Shown: positions 29,025 through 35,096 of the stretch, one piece after another | Position numbering within the stretch: position 1 is the stretch's first letter | Layout: the number at the start of each line of letters is the position of its first letter | Source of the DNA: Hoylesella saccharolytica JCM 17484 | Lineage (GTDB): Bacteria > Bacteroidota > Bacteroidia > Bacteroidales > Bacteroidaceae | Reading direction: 5' to 3' | NCBI RefSeq assembly: GCF_000614205.1 | Contig: NZ_BAKN01000004.1 | Location: 62,001-126,000, forward strand | DNA length: 64,000 nucleotides | The notes under the pieces: generated by a model | Told to the model about the DNA's origin: nothing | Seen by the model: only the letters and a program-made list of their open reading frames with translations | Databases searched by the model: none | Program-made: the position numbers and the translations under genes

Positions 29025-29516
29025 ATGAGAGATTTCGCAGCAATAGATTTTGAAACAGCCAACAACGAGCGTAGCAGCGTGTGCTCGGTGGGGCTTGTTA
29101 TCGTGCGAAATGGTGTTGTTGCAGATACATTTTATTCGCTTATACAACCCGAACCCAACTATTATAACTACTGGTGTATGCAGGTTCACGGACTTACAAA
29201 TGCTGATACCGACACCGCACCTGTATTTAGTGAGGTATGGAAAGAGGTAGAACCGCTTATCGAAGGTCTGCCGCTTGTGGCGCATAACAGTCGTTTTGAC
29301 GAGAGTTGTTTACGTGCTGTGTTCCGTGTTTATCAAATGGATTATCCCGATTACCTTTTCTTCGATACTCTTAAAGCTGCCCGCCGCACCTTCCCTCATC
29401 TGCCTAACCACCAGCTTCACACAGTGGCTTCCGAGTGTGGCTATCAGTTGGCGAACCATCATCATGCCTTAGCCGATGCAGAGGCCTGCGCGTGGATTGC
29501 ATTAGAAATATTATAA
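29025..29516 (+). CDS. DnaQ-like 3'-5' exonuclease (DEDDh)
   Basis: 163 residues, a lone exonuclease domain as in DNA polymerase III epsilon. Exo I is FAAIDFETAN, Exo II is PLVAHNSRFDESCLRAVF, and Exo III is NHHHALADAEACAWI, giving the D-E-D-D and His residues. FSLIQPEPNYY-like text and the HGLTNADTD motif are usual. It starts an accessory block with a DNPH1-like hydrolase and two DUF262 genes. It may serve repair or defence; the sequence cannot decide. Confidence 0.88.
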   Translation: MRDFAAIDFETANNERSSVCSVGLVIVRNGVVADTFYSLIQPEPNYYNYWCMQVHGLTNADTDTAPVFSEVWKEVEPLIEGLPLVAHNSRFDESCLRAVFRVYQMDYPDYLFFDTLKAARRTFPHLPNHQLHTVASECGYQLANHHHALADAEACAWIALEIL

Positions 29517-29563: not shown

Positions 29564-29992
29564 ATGAATAAGAATGTATATTTCGCCGGATCTATTCGTG
29601 GTGGCAGAGTTGATGCAGCTTTATATCACAGAATTATCAGTTATATAAAGAAAACGGATACAGTACTTACAGAACATATTGGCAAATCTAATATAAGTTT
29701 AACAGCACAAACGCGTGCTGTTGATACGCACATATACGAGCAAGATACAACTTGGCTCAGGTCGTCTGATTTATTAATAGCAGAATGCACCTGCCCTTCT
29801 TTAGGCGTTGGTTACGAGCTGGCTTATGCTGAAGCTCATAACATTCCGGTTTTTATTTTCTATGATAAAACAAAATCTAACTTATCGGCTATGTTGAACG
29901 GAAATACTTACTTCACCATCATTCCGTACGAAACAGAAGAAGAAATCTATCCCGTGCTTGATAAAATACTGGGAAATCAAACTAAAGAGTAA
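29564..29992 (+). CDS. DNPH1-like 2'-deoxynucleoside 5'-phosphate N-hydrolase
   Basis: 142 residues. Begins MNKNVYFAGSIRGGRVDAAL and continues SYIKKTDTVLTEHIG, IYEQDTTWLRSSDLLIAECT and CPSLGVGYELAYAEA, closely following the animal Rcl/DNPH1 pattern: the FxGSIRGGR nucleotide loop, an Asp in EQD, and the catalytic Glu in GVGYELA. DNPH1 splits the base from deoxynucleoside monophosphates and clears 5-hydroxymethyl-dUMP. Members of the wider nucleoside 2-deoxyribosyltransferase family are the main alternative. It lies 47 bp after the exonuclease and is probably co-transcribed with it. Confidence 0.85.
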   Translation: MNKNVYFAGSIRGGRVDAALYHRIISYIKKTDTVLTEHIGKSNISLTAQTRAVDTHIYEQDTTWLRSSDLLIAECTCPSLGVGYELAYAEAHNIPVFIFYDKTKSNLSAMLNGNTYFTIIPYETEEEIYPVLDKILGNQTKE

Positions 29993-30154: not shown

Positions 30155-30228
30155 CTTCGCAACACACATCTGATACTTCATTTATTCGATAATAAAACAA
30201 CTGTCAGAACAAGTCTTGACTATTACAA

Positions 30229-32091
30229 ATAAATACAACTACGAATAATAATTCTAAAGAAATCAACCTGAAAGCTTTCAAAGAACTTTCGGGACTTACG
30301 TTCATAATACCAAGCCTACAACGCGGTTACAAGTGGACTCCTAAAAACGTAAAGGAACTTTTGAAAGACCTTTGGGAATTTTCAAAGCAGGAAAACAAGA
30401 ACATGTATTGCCTACAACCCATAGCGGTTGTTAAGCATGAAGAGCGAAAATATGAAGTTCTTGATGGCCAACAACGGCTTACCACCCTATTTCTTCTATA
30501 CAAGTATCTAACCCAAAAGAATGCCTACACCTTCGAATTTGAAAGAGACAACAACGAATCCGACAACAACAGGTGGGATTTTCTAACAGCCATTGACAAA
30601 AAAGAAAAGCTGGACGACAGCCAAATCGACCGTTTCTACATCACGAAAGCATACGAAACGATTAAGGATGCTTTCGAAAAAGAACCGCAGGAGATTTTCC
30701 CTGGTTTAGAGAAAGAAAACCTTAAAGATCTGTTCGAGGAACTATTGAAAGCAAAACGCGAGAAAAAGTCGGTACAAGTGATTTGGTATGAGACCCCAAA
30801 AGAGAAAGCGTACAAAACATTTAGAAACTTAAATAGTGGGAAAATCAGCCTTAGTAATAGCGACCTTATCAAAGGTCTCTTGCTAAATAGGGTTAACGGA
30901 TTGCCTTCTGAACATCATAACATGGTAGCCCGCCAGCTTGAAGAGATGGAGCAAGCGCTAAACCAAAACAAGTTCTGGTTTATGCTTTCACGCGAAGAAC
31001 CCAAGCATCCATACACGCGCATGGACCTCTTATATAATGTAGTTGCTAATGTAAGAGAGGAAGATGTAAGGATTGACTATCGCACTTCGTTCAGATGGTT
31101 TGCCGAGAACGACAATAAAAGTCTAATAGAAAAATGGAAACAAGTACGCCATACGTTCTTACGTTTGTATGATTTGTACACCGATACATATACTTACCAT
31201 TATATTGGCTTTCTTACTTATCACCATAAGGGTGACACCATTAAGCGGATTTACAAATTAATTGAGGAGAACGAGAAATGCTCCAAGCAAGAATTTATAT
31301 CGCAGTTAAGAACTAGCATTCAGAAAATAGTCAACCCCAAAGAAGATAGGGAAATTAAAGATTACTCTTATATCAACAACTCGGCTAACGAATTGCGAGA
31401 TTTACTTCTGCTCCACAACATCGAAACACTTCTCCAACGTTACCAAACACTCAAAGACAGCAAACAATATCAACTGCAATATGAATTCGAGCAATTCCCA
31501 TTTGAAGTGCTATATAAACAAAATTGGGATATAGAGCATATTGCCTCACAAACGGACAACAGCTTGAGAAAAGAGAAAGAATGGACGAGTTGGCTACAAA
31601 GCGTTGAGGCTGACTACCCCTCATACTTTAACTATGACGGAGATATAGACGAAGACAGTCTCAAAGCAAAAATCCAAAGATATAAAATAAACTTTGAAAA
31701 GGAAAAGAACAAAAATAATTTTAATCAGCTATATGAGGTTATCATTCGGTATAACGAAGAAGAAACCCTAGGCAACGAAGCCATTAAAGAAGATGAAAAA
31801 GATAACATATGGAACCTTGTTCTGCTTGACAGGCACACCAATAGAAGTTACAAAAACGACCTCTTCCCACAAAAAAGGAAAGCGATTATAACGGCAGATG
31901 GTTTGGGAGCTAATGTTGAGACACGACAATTCATTCCATTATGCACAATGCAATGTTTCACAAAAGCCTATAACAAAGAAAACAACGTAAAACTGAACGC
32001 ATGGACCAAAGCAGATGCTGAGGCTTACATAGAAGACATAAAAGAGAAACTTAGCAAATATCTCACTAACAAAAAAAGACCAAGACAATGA
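30229..32091 (+). CDS. DUF262-DUF1524 protein, GmrSD-like (first of pair)
   Basis: About 620 residues. The N-terminal DUF262 domain (ParB/Srx fold, nucleotide-dependent) shows IPSLQRGYKW and VLDGQQRLTTLFLLYKYL. The C-terminal DUF1524 domain is HNH-like, with WDIEHIASQ and IWNLVLLDRHTNRSYKNDLF supplying His and Asn. This is the full GmrSD layout, a type IV restriction enzyme family that cuts modified DNA with NTP hydrolysis. The homology begins well before the TTG at 30361, at NLKAFKELSGLTFIIPS, yet no ATG, GTG or TTG lies upstream in frame. ATA at 30229 (then NTTTNNNSKE) looks like a former ATG. The stop overlaps the next start as ATGA. The coding is AT-rich compared with flanking housekeeping genes. 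Confidence 0.85.
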   Translation: MNTTTNNNSKEINLKAFKELSGLTFIIPSLQRGYKWTPKNVKELLKDLWEFSKQENKNMYCLQPIAVVKHEERKYEVLDGQQRLTTLFLLYKYLTQKNAYTFEFERDNNESDNNRWDFLTAIDKKEKLDDSQIDRFYITKAYETIKDAFEKEPQEIFPGLEKENLKDLFEELLKAKREKKSVQVIWYETPKEKAYKTFRNLNSGKISLSNSDLIKGLLLNRVNGLPSEHHNMVARQLEEMEQALNQNKFWFMLSREEPKHPYTRMDLLYNVVANVREEDVRIDYRTSFRWFAENDNKSLIEKWKQVRHTFLRLYDLYTDTYTYHYIGFLTYHHKGDTIKRIYKLIEENEKCSKQEFISQLRTSIQKIVNPKEDREIKDYSYINNSANELRDLLLLHNIETLLQRYQTLKDSKQYQLQYEFEQFPFEVLYKQNWDIEHIASQTDNSLRKEKEWTSWLQSVEADYPSYFNYDGDIDEDSLKAKIQRYKINFEKEKNKNNFNQLYEVIIRYNEEETLGNEAIKEDEKDNIWNLVLLDRHTNRSYKNDLFPQKRKAIITADGLGANVETRQFIPLCTMQCFTKAYNKENNVKLNAWTKADAEAYIEDIKEKLSKYLTNKKRPRQ

Positions 32092-34607
32092 ACTTTATTA
32101 AAGCATTCGAAAACAAAATCATATTAATCCCACTGTTACAGCGAGATTATGTTCAAGGAAGTGTAGAATCTGTTATCACGCCGTTCATTGAACAACTAGT
32201 AGATAAAGACAGACTCTCGGACCTTAACCACATATATGGCTACAACGAAGATGGAAAGTTCGTGCCTATTGATGGACAACAACGCCTTATCACATTGTGG
32301 CTTTTACATTTATATTGTGCCGCAAAGTCTCACAGCGTACTTAACGTCAAACTACAATTCGTGTCTAGAGAATTTGCAAACGATTTCAGCGAATACTTAG
32401 CTAGAAAACTCTCCGTGCTACTTGACAACTTGAAAGAAGAGAAAGGAAAAGACCTAGGACAAGTCATTATCAATCAGAGCTGGTTTGTTTCTTCGTGGGA
32501 GCATAACCAAACAGTACGCGGCATGCTCAATACACTTAAACATATTCATCGTGAATATAAGCGCAAAGATGCAAGTGAAATGTGGGAACAACTCAATTCT
32601 GATAATTGTCACATAACATTCTCGTTCTTAGATATGGGTGGCGAACAAGGACTGGATGACGACATATACATTAAGATGAATGGACGTGGCAGACCTCTTA
32701 GCGTGTTTGAAAACCTAAAATCATGGATGGACGAACAGATTACAACCTGCAAACTATCCACATCTAAAAATATGGATGAAAAGGATGAATGGCGCAACTT
32801 ATGGCCTGACTATATGGACAACAAGTGGACCGATTTCTTTTGGGAGAATAGAAATAAGGGGCAAGAACATCCAGAAGAAATTGACGACGAACAGCTTTAT
32901 TGTTTCTGCAATCTGCTCATCCTATATTGGATGAAGCACAAAGACGAGCTTAAAAACAAACTAGAAGAAACAAAGAAAGATGAAACTCTGTATGAAGACC
33001 TTCTAAGACTTCTCAAAAAAGAAGGGAAAAAGGAAGATGTCGAACAGATTATCAGCTATATCTTTGAAAGCCTTCAAAGAGCAGCACTTCCTCCTTTGGT
33101 GTGGATTGAAAGGTTAGAGCTTATGCCTGCTGAATTTCTCCGTTTTGTTTTCGACTCTCTTAATACGTTACACAATCTATCAGATTCGATAAACAACTCT
33201 GAAACATACATTGGTACCATTAAAGATGGACTAACAAAAAACTATTACCTGTCCATGTGCGAAGGAACGTTTGGAAGAACATTGCCTTTACTCTATGCAA
33301 TATTGCTTTGCAATGATGCTGAAAAACTTCACGATTGGTTAAGGGTTTGCCGCAATCTCATAGAAAATACTCCAATTGGTCAGGAAGAGCTGCCTAACAT
33401 TCTAGAGAGTTTGGATAATTTCTATGCTCACGTCAAGGATAAAGATCTCTTAAATGTGTTAGTCAAAGATGTGAATACAGATACTTTGTTGAATAAATTC
33501 GGAACGTCACAAGTAAAAGAAGAACGCCAAAAAGCTGAACTTCCACCAGAATTTAGAACTACAATTGAGAAACTAGAAAACCACCCTTTCTTCTTTGGCA
33601 AAATTGGAATTGTGTTTAAAGTTTTAGGAAACAGCAATGGTATTGTTACTGGCGGGCTAAACAAGTTTGAGAAATGTACTGCTGTTCTAAGCACAATTTT
33701 CAGTAAGACGAGCTTCAAAGGAGTTAGAGAAATTTTCGACAAAGAGGACGAATACTTACTTAGGCGTGCGTTAATGGCAGTATCCAAGCCAAACTATTAT
33801 GGATACGACAAAGGCAACGATTGGTGTTTCTGCAACAAGAGGGAAGAATGGAAAGGGTTTCTCGACACTCAAGAAGATGGACTAAACACATTCAAGCAAC
33901 TTATTAATAATTGCATCGAGCGGTTGGGTTCTAATAACTACGATGTAGAAAAGTCCTGTAAAAACTATATGGAAAAAATTATTGCTGAAACAGAGTCTGA
34001 CTACGAAAAAAAGCTCAATGAGCCGGATAGAGAGAACAAGTTCTCTTTGCACTTCGTACATCATCCGGGCATATGGAAGTACATGCACTATAAAAAATGT
34101 CGTTGGAATAACGACTTCAACATCATGCTCAAACGGAGAGATAGGGTTAACAAGATGAACCTCCGAACTTACGCGCTATACCTTGACTATTGCGATACGT
34201 CAATTAGGAAAAACCTTGTTGAGGACCGAAAGGATTGGAAATGTTTTTGTTATGAACGCGAAGATTCTTGTCTTTATTTTGAAAAATATTTTAGCAGCAT
34301 TAGGCGGACGATTGCCATTGATGTGCTACACAATGGGAGTAAGGAGGATGACTATTCATTAAAGTTATTTGTGCGCCCCACCAATGAAGAATCTGTAATG
34401 GGCTTCAGTGTTCTTCAAGCCATAAATATGCAATACTTATCTGATATTGATAGTAAAACCAAAGATATTCAATTCAAAATAAGTAAAAAGAGAGGGCGCT
34501 ACGAAACGGTTGAACGATATTCGCGTGATGGCATTATCAAAGCGATAAAAAAACTTATAGCAACCGTTAATGCGACATTAGAAGGCAACCCAAACGAGGA
34601 AAATTAA
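32088..34607 (+). CDS. Large DUF262 protein (second of pair)
   Basis: 839 residues. Starts MNFIKAFENKIILIPLLQRD; the DUF262 domain has IPLLQRDYVQG, VPIDGQQRLITLWLLHLYC and IYIKMNGRGRPLSVFENLK in the first 230 residues. The other 600 residues match no domain known to me, and no HNH motif was found. They are charged and mostly helical in appearance, with Cys/Trp clusters such as NDWCFCNKREEWKGF and RKDWKCFCYEREDS. ATGA overlap with the previous gene means tight coupling, so the two probably form one complex in which only the first carries the nuclease. Low GC and an accessory setting suggest transfer. Defence is the best guess, from the GmrSD family. Confidence 0.85.
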   Translation: MNFIKAFENKIILIPLLQRDYVQGSVESVITPFIEQLVDKDRLSDLNHIYGYNEDGKFVPIDGQQRLITLWLLHLYCAAKSHSVLNVKLQFVSREFANDFSEYLARKLSVLLDNLKEEKGKDLGQVIINQSWFVSSWEHNQTVRGMLNTLKHIHREYKRKDASEMWEQLNSDNCHITFSFLDMGGEQGLDDDIYIKMNGRGRPLSVFENLKSWMDEQITTCKLSTSKNMDEKDEWRNLWPDYMDNKWTDFFWENRNKGQEHPEEIDDEQLYCFCNLLILYWMKHKDELKNKLEETKKDETLYEDLLRLLKKEGKKEDVEQIISYIFESLQRAALPPLVWIERLELMPAEFLRFVFDSLNTLHNLSDSINNSETYIGTIKDGLTKNYYLSMCEGTFGRTLPLLYAILLCNDAEKLHDWLRVCRNLIENTPIGQEELPNILESLDNFYAHVKDKDLLNVLVKDVNTDTLLNKFGTSQVKEERQKAELPPEFRTTIEKLENHPFFFGKIGIVFKVLGNSNGIVTGGLNKFEKCTAVLSTIFSKTSFKGVREIFDKEDEYLLRRALMAVSKPNYYGYDKGNDWCFCNKREEWKGFLDTQEDGLNTFKQLINNCIERLGSNNYDVEKSCKNYMEKIIAETESDYEKKLNEPDRENKFSLHFVHHPGIWKYMHYKKCRWNNDFNIMLKRRDRVNKMNLRTYALYLDYCDTSIRKNLVEDRKDWKCFCYEREDSCLYFEKYFSSIRRTIAIDVLHNGSKEDDYSLKLFVRPTNEESVMGFSVLQAINMQYLSDIDSKTKDIQFKISKKRGRYETVERYSRDGIIKAIKKLIATVNATLEGNPNEEN

Positions 34608-34695: not shown

Positions 34696-34839
34696 ATGGA
34701 AGCAAAGAAGTTCGGTGCCTTGAACCTGCTGACTGCAATGGAGCAGAACATCTCAATGGCAGAGGGAACAATAGTGATGTTAACCATATCGATCTACGCG
34801 ATCTTACTAAGTTCTTATCTTGCAGTACCATTCAGATGA
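34696..34839 (+). CDS. Possible small membrane protein
   Basis: 47 residues from the first ATG after a -7-like TATTTTTG at 34660. MEAKKFGALNLLTAMEQNIS is followed by a hydrophobic segment IVMLTISIYAILLSSYLAV. It overlaps, in another frame, a truncated phosphoesterase and may be chance. Included because start, promoter-like box and a single transmembrane segment agree. Confidence 0.2.
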   Translation: MEAKKFGALNLLTAMEQNISMAEGTIVMLTISIYAILLSSYLAVPFR

Positions 34840-35096
34840 TTAAATGTATGAATGATACAGACGTACTTGTTACCCACGAACCGCCCATGATGATTCTTGA
34901 TAAATCCAATGGTACACATTGGGGTAATTTACCGCTAAGAAATAAGGTCATGCAGATAAAGCTTCAACTTCATCTCTTCGGTCATGCACATGAAGCATAC
35001 GGAAGAGAACGACATGCAAACACAATATATTCTAATGCTGTTGTGCTTGATGACCAATATCGAATGTGTAACAAACCGCAATTACATATATTGTAA
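34765..35096 (+). pseudogene. Truncated calcineurin-like phosphoesterase
   Basis: The C-terminal half of a metallophosphoesterase: DTDVLVTHEPPMMILDKSNG, LRNKVMQIKLQLHLFGHAHE and ANTIYSNAVVLDDQYRM. The TH and GHxH motifs that bind the second metal are intact, but the N-terminal DxH, GDxxD and GNHD motifs are absent; the sequence before about 34786 is unrelated. It ends the accessory block and looks cut by the insertion of the DUF262 pair or a related event. Confidence 0.7.

What the first reader, a model, noticed from the sequence alone, without database searches (positions are those of the whole stretch)
30229..34607. Two overlapping DUF262 genes: candidate two-subunit defence system
The first protein has the full DUF262-DUF1524 layout of GmrSD type IV enzymes, with DGQQR and the HNH-like IEHI and NLxLL...N motifs. 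The second, joined by ATGA overlap, has an intact DUF262 but a unique ~600-residue C-terminal part with no HNH motif. One nuclease subunit and one non-nuclease DUF262 subunit of unknown specificity would differ from single-chain GmrSD and from separate GmrS/GmrD.
Basis: partly seen in the sequence, partly recalled or inferred. Interest (0 to 1): 0.75.

Follow-up and report, generated by a model that had tools for sequence, protein, structure and literature searches.

The report
Two-gene GrwAB-type phage restriction pair
Two overlapping bacterial genes most likely encode the two partners of an already described kind of anti-phage enzyme that recognises chemically modified phage DNA; this copy is a divergent member whose first gene lacks an ordinary start codon.

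Summary
The two genes are real. Gene 1 (30229-32091) is a DUF262-DUF1524 (GmrSD-type) protein with its catalytic residues in place; gene 2 (32088-34607, ATGA overlap) has a DUF262 and no HNH motif. The pairing is not chance: of 92 relatives of gene 2 (12 plasmid neighbourhoods, 80 genome contigs), 88 have a gene-1 homologue directly upstream, one a gene-1 fragment, one a fused frame, two end at a contig edge; of 296 genomes of the phylum, the same 8 have strong matches to both. [quoted passage not shown] The C-terminal part of gene 2 is shared by the family, not unique. New details: gene 2 resembles SspE/DndI without the nuclease; the tyrosine equivalent to the phosphorothioate-sensing residue of DndI/SspE is kept in 52 of 54 gene-1 proteins but lost in the window and its sister; relatives sit in type I RM operons or beside WYL and exonuclease genes. 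Gene 1 has no ATG, GTG or TTG before its first DUF262 motif, so activity here is uncertain. V. cholerae GrwAB sequences could not be obtained; membership rests on architecture and geometry.

The parts
30229..32091 (+). gene 1, GrwA-type: DUF262 (GmrSD_N), helical linker, DUF1524-like His-Me (HNH) nuclease; start uncertain (no ATG/GTG/TTG before motif I)
30307..30336 (+). motif I, IPSLQRGYKW; Leu30 stands where 52 of 54 aligned family members have Tyr (equivalent of DndI Y25 / SspE Y30)
   Evidence: DndI and SspE residues from PMC11662687, passages
30463..30477 (+). DGQQR NTPase motif of gene 1 (invariant in 54 of 54 aligned)
31534..31539 (+). Glu436-His437 of the His-Me nuclease (invariant in 54 of 54 aligned)
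31813..31842 (+). NLVLLDRHTN, N529 and N538 of the nuclease, 9 residues apart as in 54 of 54 aligned and in GrwA (N521/N530)
32088..32091 (+). ATGA overlap of gene 1 stop and gene 2 start
   Evidence: a 4-base overlap is possible in 21 of 88 relatives, taking the gene 2 start nearest to the gene 1 stop
32088..34607 (+). gene 2, GrwB-type: DUF262, long helical part, C-terminal alpha/beta domain, no HNH found
32271..32285 (+). DGQQR NTPase motif of gene 2 (invariant in 56 of 56 aligned)
33342..33599 (+). family-conserved block of gene 2 (R419, N423, E479, K482, E497, G504) in the helical part
34158..34604 (+). predicted C-terminal alpha/beta domain of gene 2 (residues 691-839), no safe structural match
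29025..29516 (+). DnaQ-like 3'-5' exonuclease (RNase_T); neighbour; a homologue is directly next to gene 1 in 9 of 92 relatives
29564..29992 (+). nucleoside 2-deoxyribosyltransferase-like gene between the exonuclease and the pair; no link to the family shown
34800..35084 (+). C-terminal fragment of a calcineurin-like phosphoesterase; homologues lie near the pair in 8 of 92 relatives

Best explanation
A GrwAB-type two-protein type IV restriction system. GrwA (gene 1) is the nuclease subunit: its DUF262 binds and hydrolyses NTP, reads a DNA modification and controls a C-terminal His-Me (HNH) nuclease. GrwB (gene 2) is an obligate partner with its own DUF262 NTPase, a helical part like that of SspE/DndI, no nuclease, and a C-terminal alpha/beta domain; it most likely binds GrwA and helps to read or license cleavage of hypermodified phage DNA. 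Shown here: motifs, pairing, co-divergence, predicted folds. Shown by others for V. cholerae GrwAB: both proteins, both DUF262 arginines and the nuclease residues are needed, and the phages affected carry modified cytosine or 7-deazaguanine. Inferred: complex formation, modification dependence and target for this copy.
For: Gene order nuclease first, then DUF262-only, as GrwA-GrwB. Spacing: R83-H437 354, H437-N529 92, N529-N538 9, against GrwA 350, 90 and 9 from its published residue numbers; the 54 aligned gene-1 proteins span 321-403, 61-116 and 9. Pairing in the 92 loci L007-L098: 88 with an adjacent gene-1 frame (split in two frames in L010, L040, L075, L086), 1 fused frame, 1 gene-1 fragment, 2 at a contig edge. 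The same 8 genome handles of 296 have strong matches to gene 2 (E<1e-40) and to gene 1 (E<1e-80), side by side in all 8; the own genome is one of the 8. 13 of 15 viral-contig hits are the same pair. Mirror-tree r 0.85 over 54 pairs, maximum 0.29 in 2000 permutations. Gene 1 model (pLDDT 85): SspE Z 15.9, DndI Z 15.0, BrxU Z 8.2. Gene 2 model (pLDDT 81): SspE Z 11.8 (361-364 residues within 1-514), DndI Z 11.3 (266 within 1-475).
Against: V. cholerae GrwA and GrwB could not be obtained, so there is no direct alignment. The long H-N spacing is usual but not universal: of 80 gene-1 frames in which a pattern finds the residues, 75 lie in 61-116, but L013 and L060 have 17 and L017 34, so spacing alone does not prove membership. 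Gene 1 lacks an ordinary start and a neighbouring gene is truncated, so this copy may be inactive. The sensor-like tyrosine is Leu here. Co-divergence does not separate interaction from shared inheritance. Whole-chain structure matches have large rmsd (10-21 A for most) and low Foldseek TM-scores (0.17-0.33; gene 2 E 0.008).
Confidence: 0.78

Rival explanations
1. It is a TgvAB-type pair (non-nuclease DUF262 gene first, DUF262-DUF1524 gene second).
For: TgvAB is also a two-gene DUF262 system, and its homologues were reported in Bacteroides fragilis (PMC11411939, passages). Some members of the window's own family have short H-N spacing.
Against: The order is reversed in the window and in the 88 paired relatives. 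TgvB H571-N602 is 31 residues against 92 here. Five pairs with TgvAB-like order met in passing (L107, L108, L125, L212, L213) have a nuclease gene with S[IV]EHxxPQ in 5 of 5 rows and FGN in the 4 rows that reach it; their first gene aligns with gene 2 only over 72 DUF262 columns.
Confidence: 0.05
2. It is a phosphorothioate-dependent effector like SspE or DndI that works with a DNA sulphur-modification operon.
For: The nearest named solved structures of gene 1 are DndI and SspE.
Against: No DndB and no PAPS-reductase family match in the host assembly (93.75% complete), while the same searches ring in 2 and 14 of 14 control genomes; the PT-sensing tyrosine is absent from gene 1 of the window.
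Confidence: 0.03
3. The pair is a GrwAB copy with no present function: gene 1 has lost its start and the locus is eroding (compatible with the best explanation of what the genes are).
For: No ATG/GTG/TTG before motif I, against 78 of 79 relatives that have one; truncated phosphoesterase downstream.
Against: 623 and 845 codons remain open and the catalytic residues are kept; ATA, ATC or CTG codons lie in the right place, or the base may be an assembly error.
Confidence: 0.3
4. Two independent DUF262 genes that merely adjoin.
For: DUF262 genes cluster in defence islands (recalled).
Against: Constant order in 88 relatives, gene 2 able to start within 30 bases of the gene 1 stop in 84 of 88 (start taken nearest to the stop), seven phyla in the tree, identical genome sets, mirror-tree r 0.85; both genes were needed in V. 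cholerae GrwAB.
Confidence: 0.02

Closest known systems
[quoted passage not shown] cholerae, PMC12137116)
   Same: Two genes, DUF262-DUF1524 nuclease first, DUF262 plus long unknown C-terminal part second; DGQQR in both; matching spacing of R, H, N, N in gene 1
TgvAB (PMC11411939) and E. coli ECOR17 GmrS1/GmrSD2 (PMC12373910)
   Same: Two DUF262 proteins, one with the HNH domain, both needed
   Different: Non-nuclease gene first; TgvA-like proteins seen here share only part of the DUF262 with gene 2
GmrSD / BrxU / HEC-06 single-chain type IV enzymes
   Same: DUF262-DUF1524 layout of gene 1 (BrxU Z 8.2; HEC-06 profile E 2e-18, best stretch in the DUF262)
   Different: A single protein suffices there (PMC11411939, passages); here a near-constant second gene exists
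SspE and DndI
   Same: Closest named solved folds of both proteins (gene 1 Z 15-16, gene 2 Z 11-12)
   Different: They act with phosphorothioate systems; no such modification genes were detected in this assembly

Membership tests
GrwAB | Two adjacent co-directional genes, nuclease gene first | tested here: met
   window order and ATGA overlap; 88 of 92 relatives with the same order, the other 4 fused, fragmentary or at a contig edge
GrwAB | GrwA: QR, DGQQR and FxxxN motifs plus His-Me nuclease residues H431, N521, N530 | tested here: met
   Q31-R32, D79-R83, F198-N202, H437, N529, N538; spacings 354/92/9 against 350/90/9
GrwAB | GrwB: DUF262 with DGQQR followed by domains of unknown function, no HNH | tested here: met
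   Pfam finds only GmrSD_N in window gene 2; among 56 family members the other matches are five single stray ones, none a nuclease; DGQQR in 56 of 56. The FxxxN motif reads YIKMN here (residues 194-198)
GrwAB | Sequence homology to V. cholerae GrwA and GrwB along the whole length | not testable with these tools
   I had no way to fetch the A1552 sequences by name and did not type them
GrwAB | Both proteins required; modified phage DNA targeted | not testable with these tools
   needs experiment
TgvAB | Non-nuclease gene first | tested here: not met
   nuclease gene first; TgvA before TgvB in PMC11411939
TgvAB | TgvB-type H-N spacing (31) | tested here: inconclusive
   92 in the window, but 3 of 80 family members have 17-34, so spacing does not separate the families cleanly
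TgvAB | Gene 2 homologous to TgvA beyond the DUF262 | tested here: inconclusive
   hhalign to five TgvA-like proteins, chosen by architecture, covers 72 columns only; TgvA itself not compared
Separate GmrS / GmrD pair | DUF262 and DUF1524 on different proteins | tested here: not met
   gene 1 holds both, gene 2 a DUF262 only
SspE/DndI phosphorothioate systems | DNA phosphorothioation genes in the same genome | tested here: not met
   no DndB or PAPS-reductase match in G000 (93.75% complete)

The most novel reading that the evidence does not exclude
The window and its sister locus L019 form a branch of GrwAB that has given up the conserved sensor tyrosine of the nuclease subunit (Leu and Gln instead of Tyr) and has shifted modification reading to GrwB, whose DUF262 and C-terminal alpha/beta domain would act as the DNA reader. 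In that case GrwAB would be a split sensor-effector enzyme in which the partner sets the target modification.
Probability: 0.12. Interest if true: 0.55.

Novelty: new member of a known kind. Interest (0 to 1): 0.32.

Why it matters
It adds a divergent member to a two-subunit type IV restriction kind described in 2025, whose division of labour is unknown (PMC12409362, passages). It gives an alignment of 54 co-inherited pairs from seven phyla and a predicted fold for a GrwB-type protein (an HNH-less SspE/DndI-like body plus an extra C-terminal domain). It also gives a natural variant at a sensor-like residue, which makes the question 'which subunit reads the modification' testable by swaps. The PADLOC models of 2023 have their best match to window gene 1 in the DUF262 region and none to window gene 2; across 56 gene-2 proteins the most frequent model (Orf5) matches 20, so such pairs may be under-annotated.

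Tried and rejected
A single-protein scan of genome contigs with gene 2 matched 25 stretches by pattern but no relative; an alignment of 13 relatives did better. NCBIfam gave nothing for either protein. tblastn of gene 2 gave no match in the phage records. The PDB sequence search with the gene 2 profile gave DUF262 entries (20yv, 20yw, whose identity I did not learn, and SspE) and, weaker, ribosomal eL22 chains that I take as chance. The C-terminal domain of gene 2 gave many near-tied structural matches at Z 4.7-6.2: Mediator, Csm1, the T4 MotA double-wing domain, secretion chaperones, a McrBC DNA-binding domain; I did not use them, since Z under 8 may mean only a common arrangement. I looked for an empty site by placing the two flanking genes in 40 relatives each (13 and 18 matched); they lie far apart or on different contigs in most, so I did not pursue it. 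The exonuclease as a fixed third subunit is rejected: it occurs in 36 of 60 genomes, and of the 20 stretches opened around it, several cut short by contig ends, 9 show a WYL gene and 1 the pair. A combined alignment of the L079 fusion with both genes was discarded because gene 2 rows are likely to align to the gene 1 half, as both begin with a DUF262. The L079 fusion is weak evidence: its junction contains GTGA in the place of a start/stop overlap, so one natural or sequencing indel would explain it. A search for papers holding WYL domain, exonuclease, metallophosphoesterase, defense and Bacteroides found 0. H-N spacing as a separator from TgvAB was given up.
Full report
What is there. Gene 1 is open from 30220 to 32091 and gene 2 runs from 32088 to 34607 with an ATGA overlap. 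Gene 1 carries GmrSD_N (E 1.5e-30) and a sub-threshold GmrSD_C (0.003); gene 2 carries GmrSD_N (3e-16) and no nuclease match. DGQQR is present in both, and E436-H437, N529 and N538 in gene 1. These two are the only GmrSD_N matches in the host assembly.

Start of gene 1. Coordinate 30229 is ATA. No ATG, GTG or TTG lies in frame between the stop at 30217-30219 and the IPSLQRGYKW motif, and TTG 30361 would remove that motif. Of 79 relatives with the motif and a complete 5' side, 72 have an ATG, 6 only GTG or TTG, and 1 (L060) none. Downstream, 34800-35084 encodes a C-terminal part of a calcineurin-like phosphoesterase, matched by six longer homologues from loci of the pair. The copy may be decaying, use an unusual start, or contain a sequence error; I cannot tell which.

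Pairing. tblastn of gene 2 against plasmids matched 17 records; I opened 12, leaving out 5 near-identical hits of the same genus, and all 12 had a gene-1 homologue upstream, split in two frames in L010. In L014 gene 2 is cut short. Of these 92 loci (L007-L098), 88 have a gene-1 frame directly upstream (split in L010, L040, L075 and L086); L076 has a gene-1 C-terminal fragment, L079 one fused frame, and L030 and L093 begin inside gene 2 at a contig edge. Taking the gene 2 start nearest to the gene-1 stop, which favours small gaps, it lies within 30 bases in 84 of 88, with a 4-base overlap in 21. Of 100 related genomes 6 match gene 2, the own one included; the other five (L002-L006) also have gene 1. 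In 296 genomes drawn from the phylum, gene 2 has 67 genomes with some match at E 0.001 and gene 1 has 25 at 1e-20, but strong matches occur in 8 (gene 2, E<1e-40) and 8 (gene 1, E<1e-80): the same 8 handles, with both genes side by side. The weaker gene-1 matches (best 1.8e-31) cover mostly the first 200 or so of 572 positions, that is, the DUF262. In viral contigs 13 of 15 hits are the same pair; the other two have the opposite, TgvAB-like order. The two genes diverge together: r 0.85 over 54 pairs, maximum 0.29 in 2000 permutations. The contig scan started from an alignment of paired genes, which could favour paired loci; the genome searches with each gene separately are the control for that.

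Family identity. The GrwAB paper (PMC12137116; sections 11 and 32 read, passages) describes GrwA (DUF262-DUF1524; [quoted passage not shown] In the window R83-H437 is 354, H437-N529 92 and N529-N538 9; GrwA gives 350, 90 and 9. In the 54 aligned gene-1 proteins (the window and 53 of the 80 contig loci, chosen as unbroken frames with an ATG) all four residues are kept, with ranges 321-403, 61-116 (median 85) and 9. The gene 2 arginine lies at 66 in the window, 73-128 in the others. Against this: among 80 gene-1 frames of L007-L098 in which a pattern finds the residues, 75 have H-N in 61-116, but L013 and L060 have 17 and L017 34; six frames gave no value. A first, cruder pattern gave N-N 9 in 68 of 79, 11 in 2, none in 9. 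TgvB has H571 and N602, 31 apart, and of 24 other DUF262 proteins in L107-L128, 13 gave a candidate H-N pair at 16-68 residues (11 of 13 below 50) and 11 none, some of these being chance patterns. Spacing is therefore consistent with GrwA but not proof. Five TgvAB-like pairs seen in passing are separate: their first gene aligns with gene 2 over 72 DUF262 columns only, and their second gene with gene 1 over 198 columns of the DUF262 only. I could not fetch the V. cholerae GrwAB sequences, so full-length homology is untested.

Folds. The gene 1 model (pLDDT 85, pTM 0.76) matches SspE (Z 15.9, 399 residues), DndI (Z 15.0, 452 residues) and BrxU (Z 8.2); Foldseek ranks DndI and SspE first (E 1e-7 to 3e-5) but with TM-scores of 0.19-0.33. 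The gene 2 model (pLDDT 81, pTM 0.72) matches SspE (Z 11.8, 361-364 residues within 1-514) and DndI (Z 11.3, 266 residues within 1-475), with rmsd of 10 A or more; Foldseek gave SspE only weakly (E 0.008). The individual domains agree better than their arrangement. Gene 2 thus looks like an SspE/DndI body without the nuclease, plus an alpha/beta domain (691-839) with no safe match. By sequence profile the two proteins are alike over the DUF262 only (187 columns).

Sensor residue. DndI Y25 and SspE Y30 mediate the phosphorothioate response; P23, Y25 and Q26 of DndI form the P-x-Y-Q motif (PMC11662687, passages). The equivalent residue is Tyr in 52 of 54 aligned gene-1 proteins, Leu in the window and Gln in L019, and these two are sisters in the tree (100/99). 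It is also Tyr in 11 of the 12 plasmid rows; the twelfth, L010, is out of frame there. In gene 2 the position is Ile, Leu or Val in 55 of 56 and Tyr in 1. The host assembly has no DndB or PAPS-reductase family match, so a phosphorothioate partner is unlikely. That the position senses other modifications is inference.

Neighbourhood. A frame of the HsdR cluster follows gene 2 directly in 9 of 92 loci (13 have one in view), so the pair can be embedded in type I RM operons, as TgvAB is; one member, L096, was checked against Pfam. In other loci a WYL gene (21 of 92), DnaQ-like exonuclease (18), AAA ATPase (13), phosphoesterase (8) or PLD protein (6) lies in view; one representative of each was checked against Pfam. 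The window has the exonuclease and the phosphoesterase fragment. The exonuclease is common in related genomes without the pair (36 of 60; 1 of 20 opened stretches has the pair), so I take it as context, not a subunit.

Verdict. I file it as a probable new, divergent member of the GrwAB kind, with function in this strain unproven.

Noticed in passing
L079:2238-5666: Gene 1 and gene 2 in one open frame (1142 aa from the second Met) in an uncultured Victivallis contig; the junction contains GTGA, so it may be an indel rather than a true fusion.
   Followed up: partly
window 34800-35084: C-terminal fragment of a calcineurin-like phosphoesterase downstream of the pair; the rest of that frame has no match to the homologues.
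   Followed up: yes
window 29564-29992: Nucleoside 2-deoxyribosyltransferase-like gene between the exonuclease and the pair; phmmer found no homologue in the other loci held.
   Followed up: partly
L159-L178: In genomes related to the host a WYL gene lies within about 2 kb of the DnaQ-like exonuclease in 9 of 20 stretches, with varying genes after them; looks like a modular cassette head for defence or mobile genes.
   Followed up: partly
L107, L108, L125, L212, L213: TgvAB-like two-gene pairs (DUF262-only gene first) in genomes of the same phylum and in viral contigs.
   Followed up: partly
L013, L017, L060: Gene-1 homologues with a very short stretch (17, 34, 17 residues) between the catalytic His and the first Asn, where most of the family has 61-116; the helical insert of the nuclease is dispensable.
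   Followed up: partly
L060:4427-5944: The one other gene-1 homologue of 79 with no ATG/GTG/TTG before motif I (a Sporolactobacillus genome).
   Followed up: no
L172:6408-12402: A related genome carries WYL, exonuclease, the gene pair, a PLD gene and the start of a second gene-1 homologue in a row.
   Followed up: no
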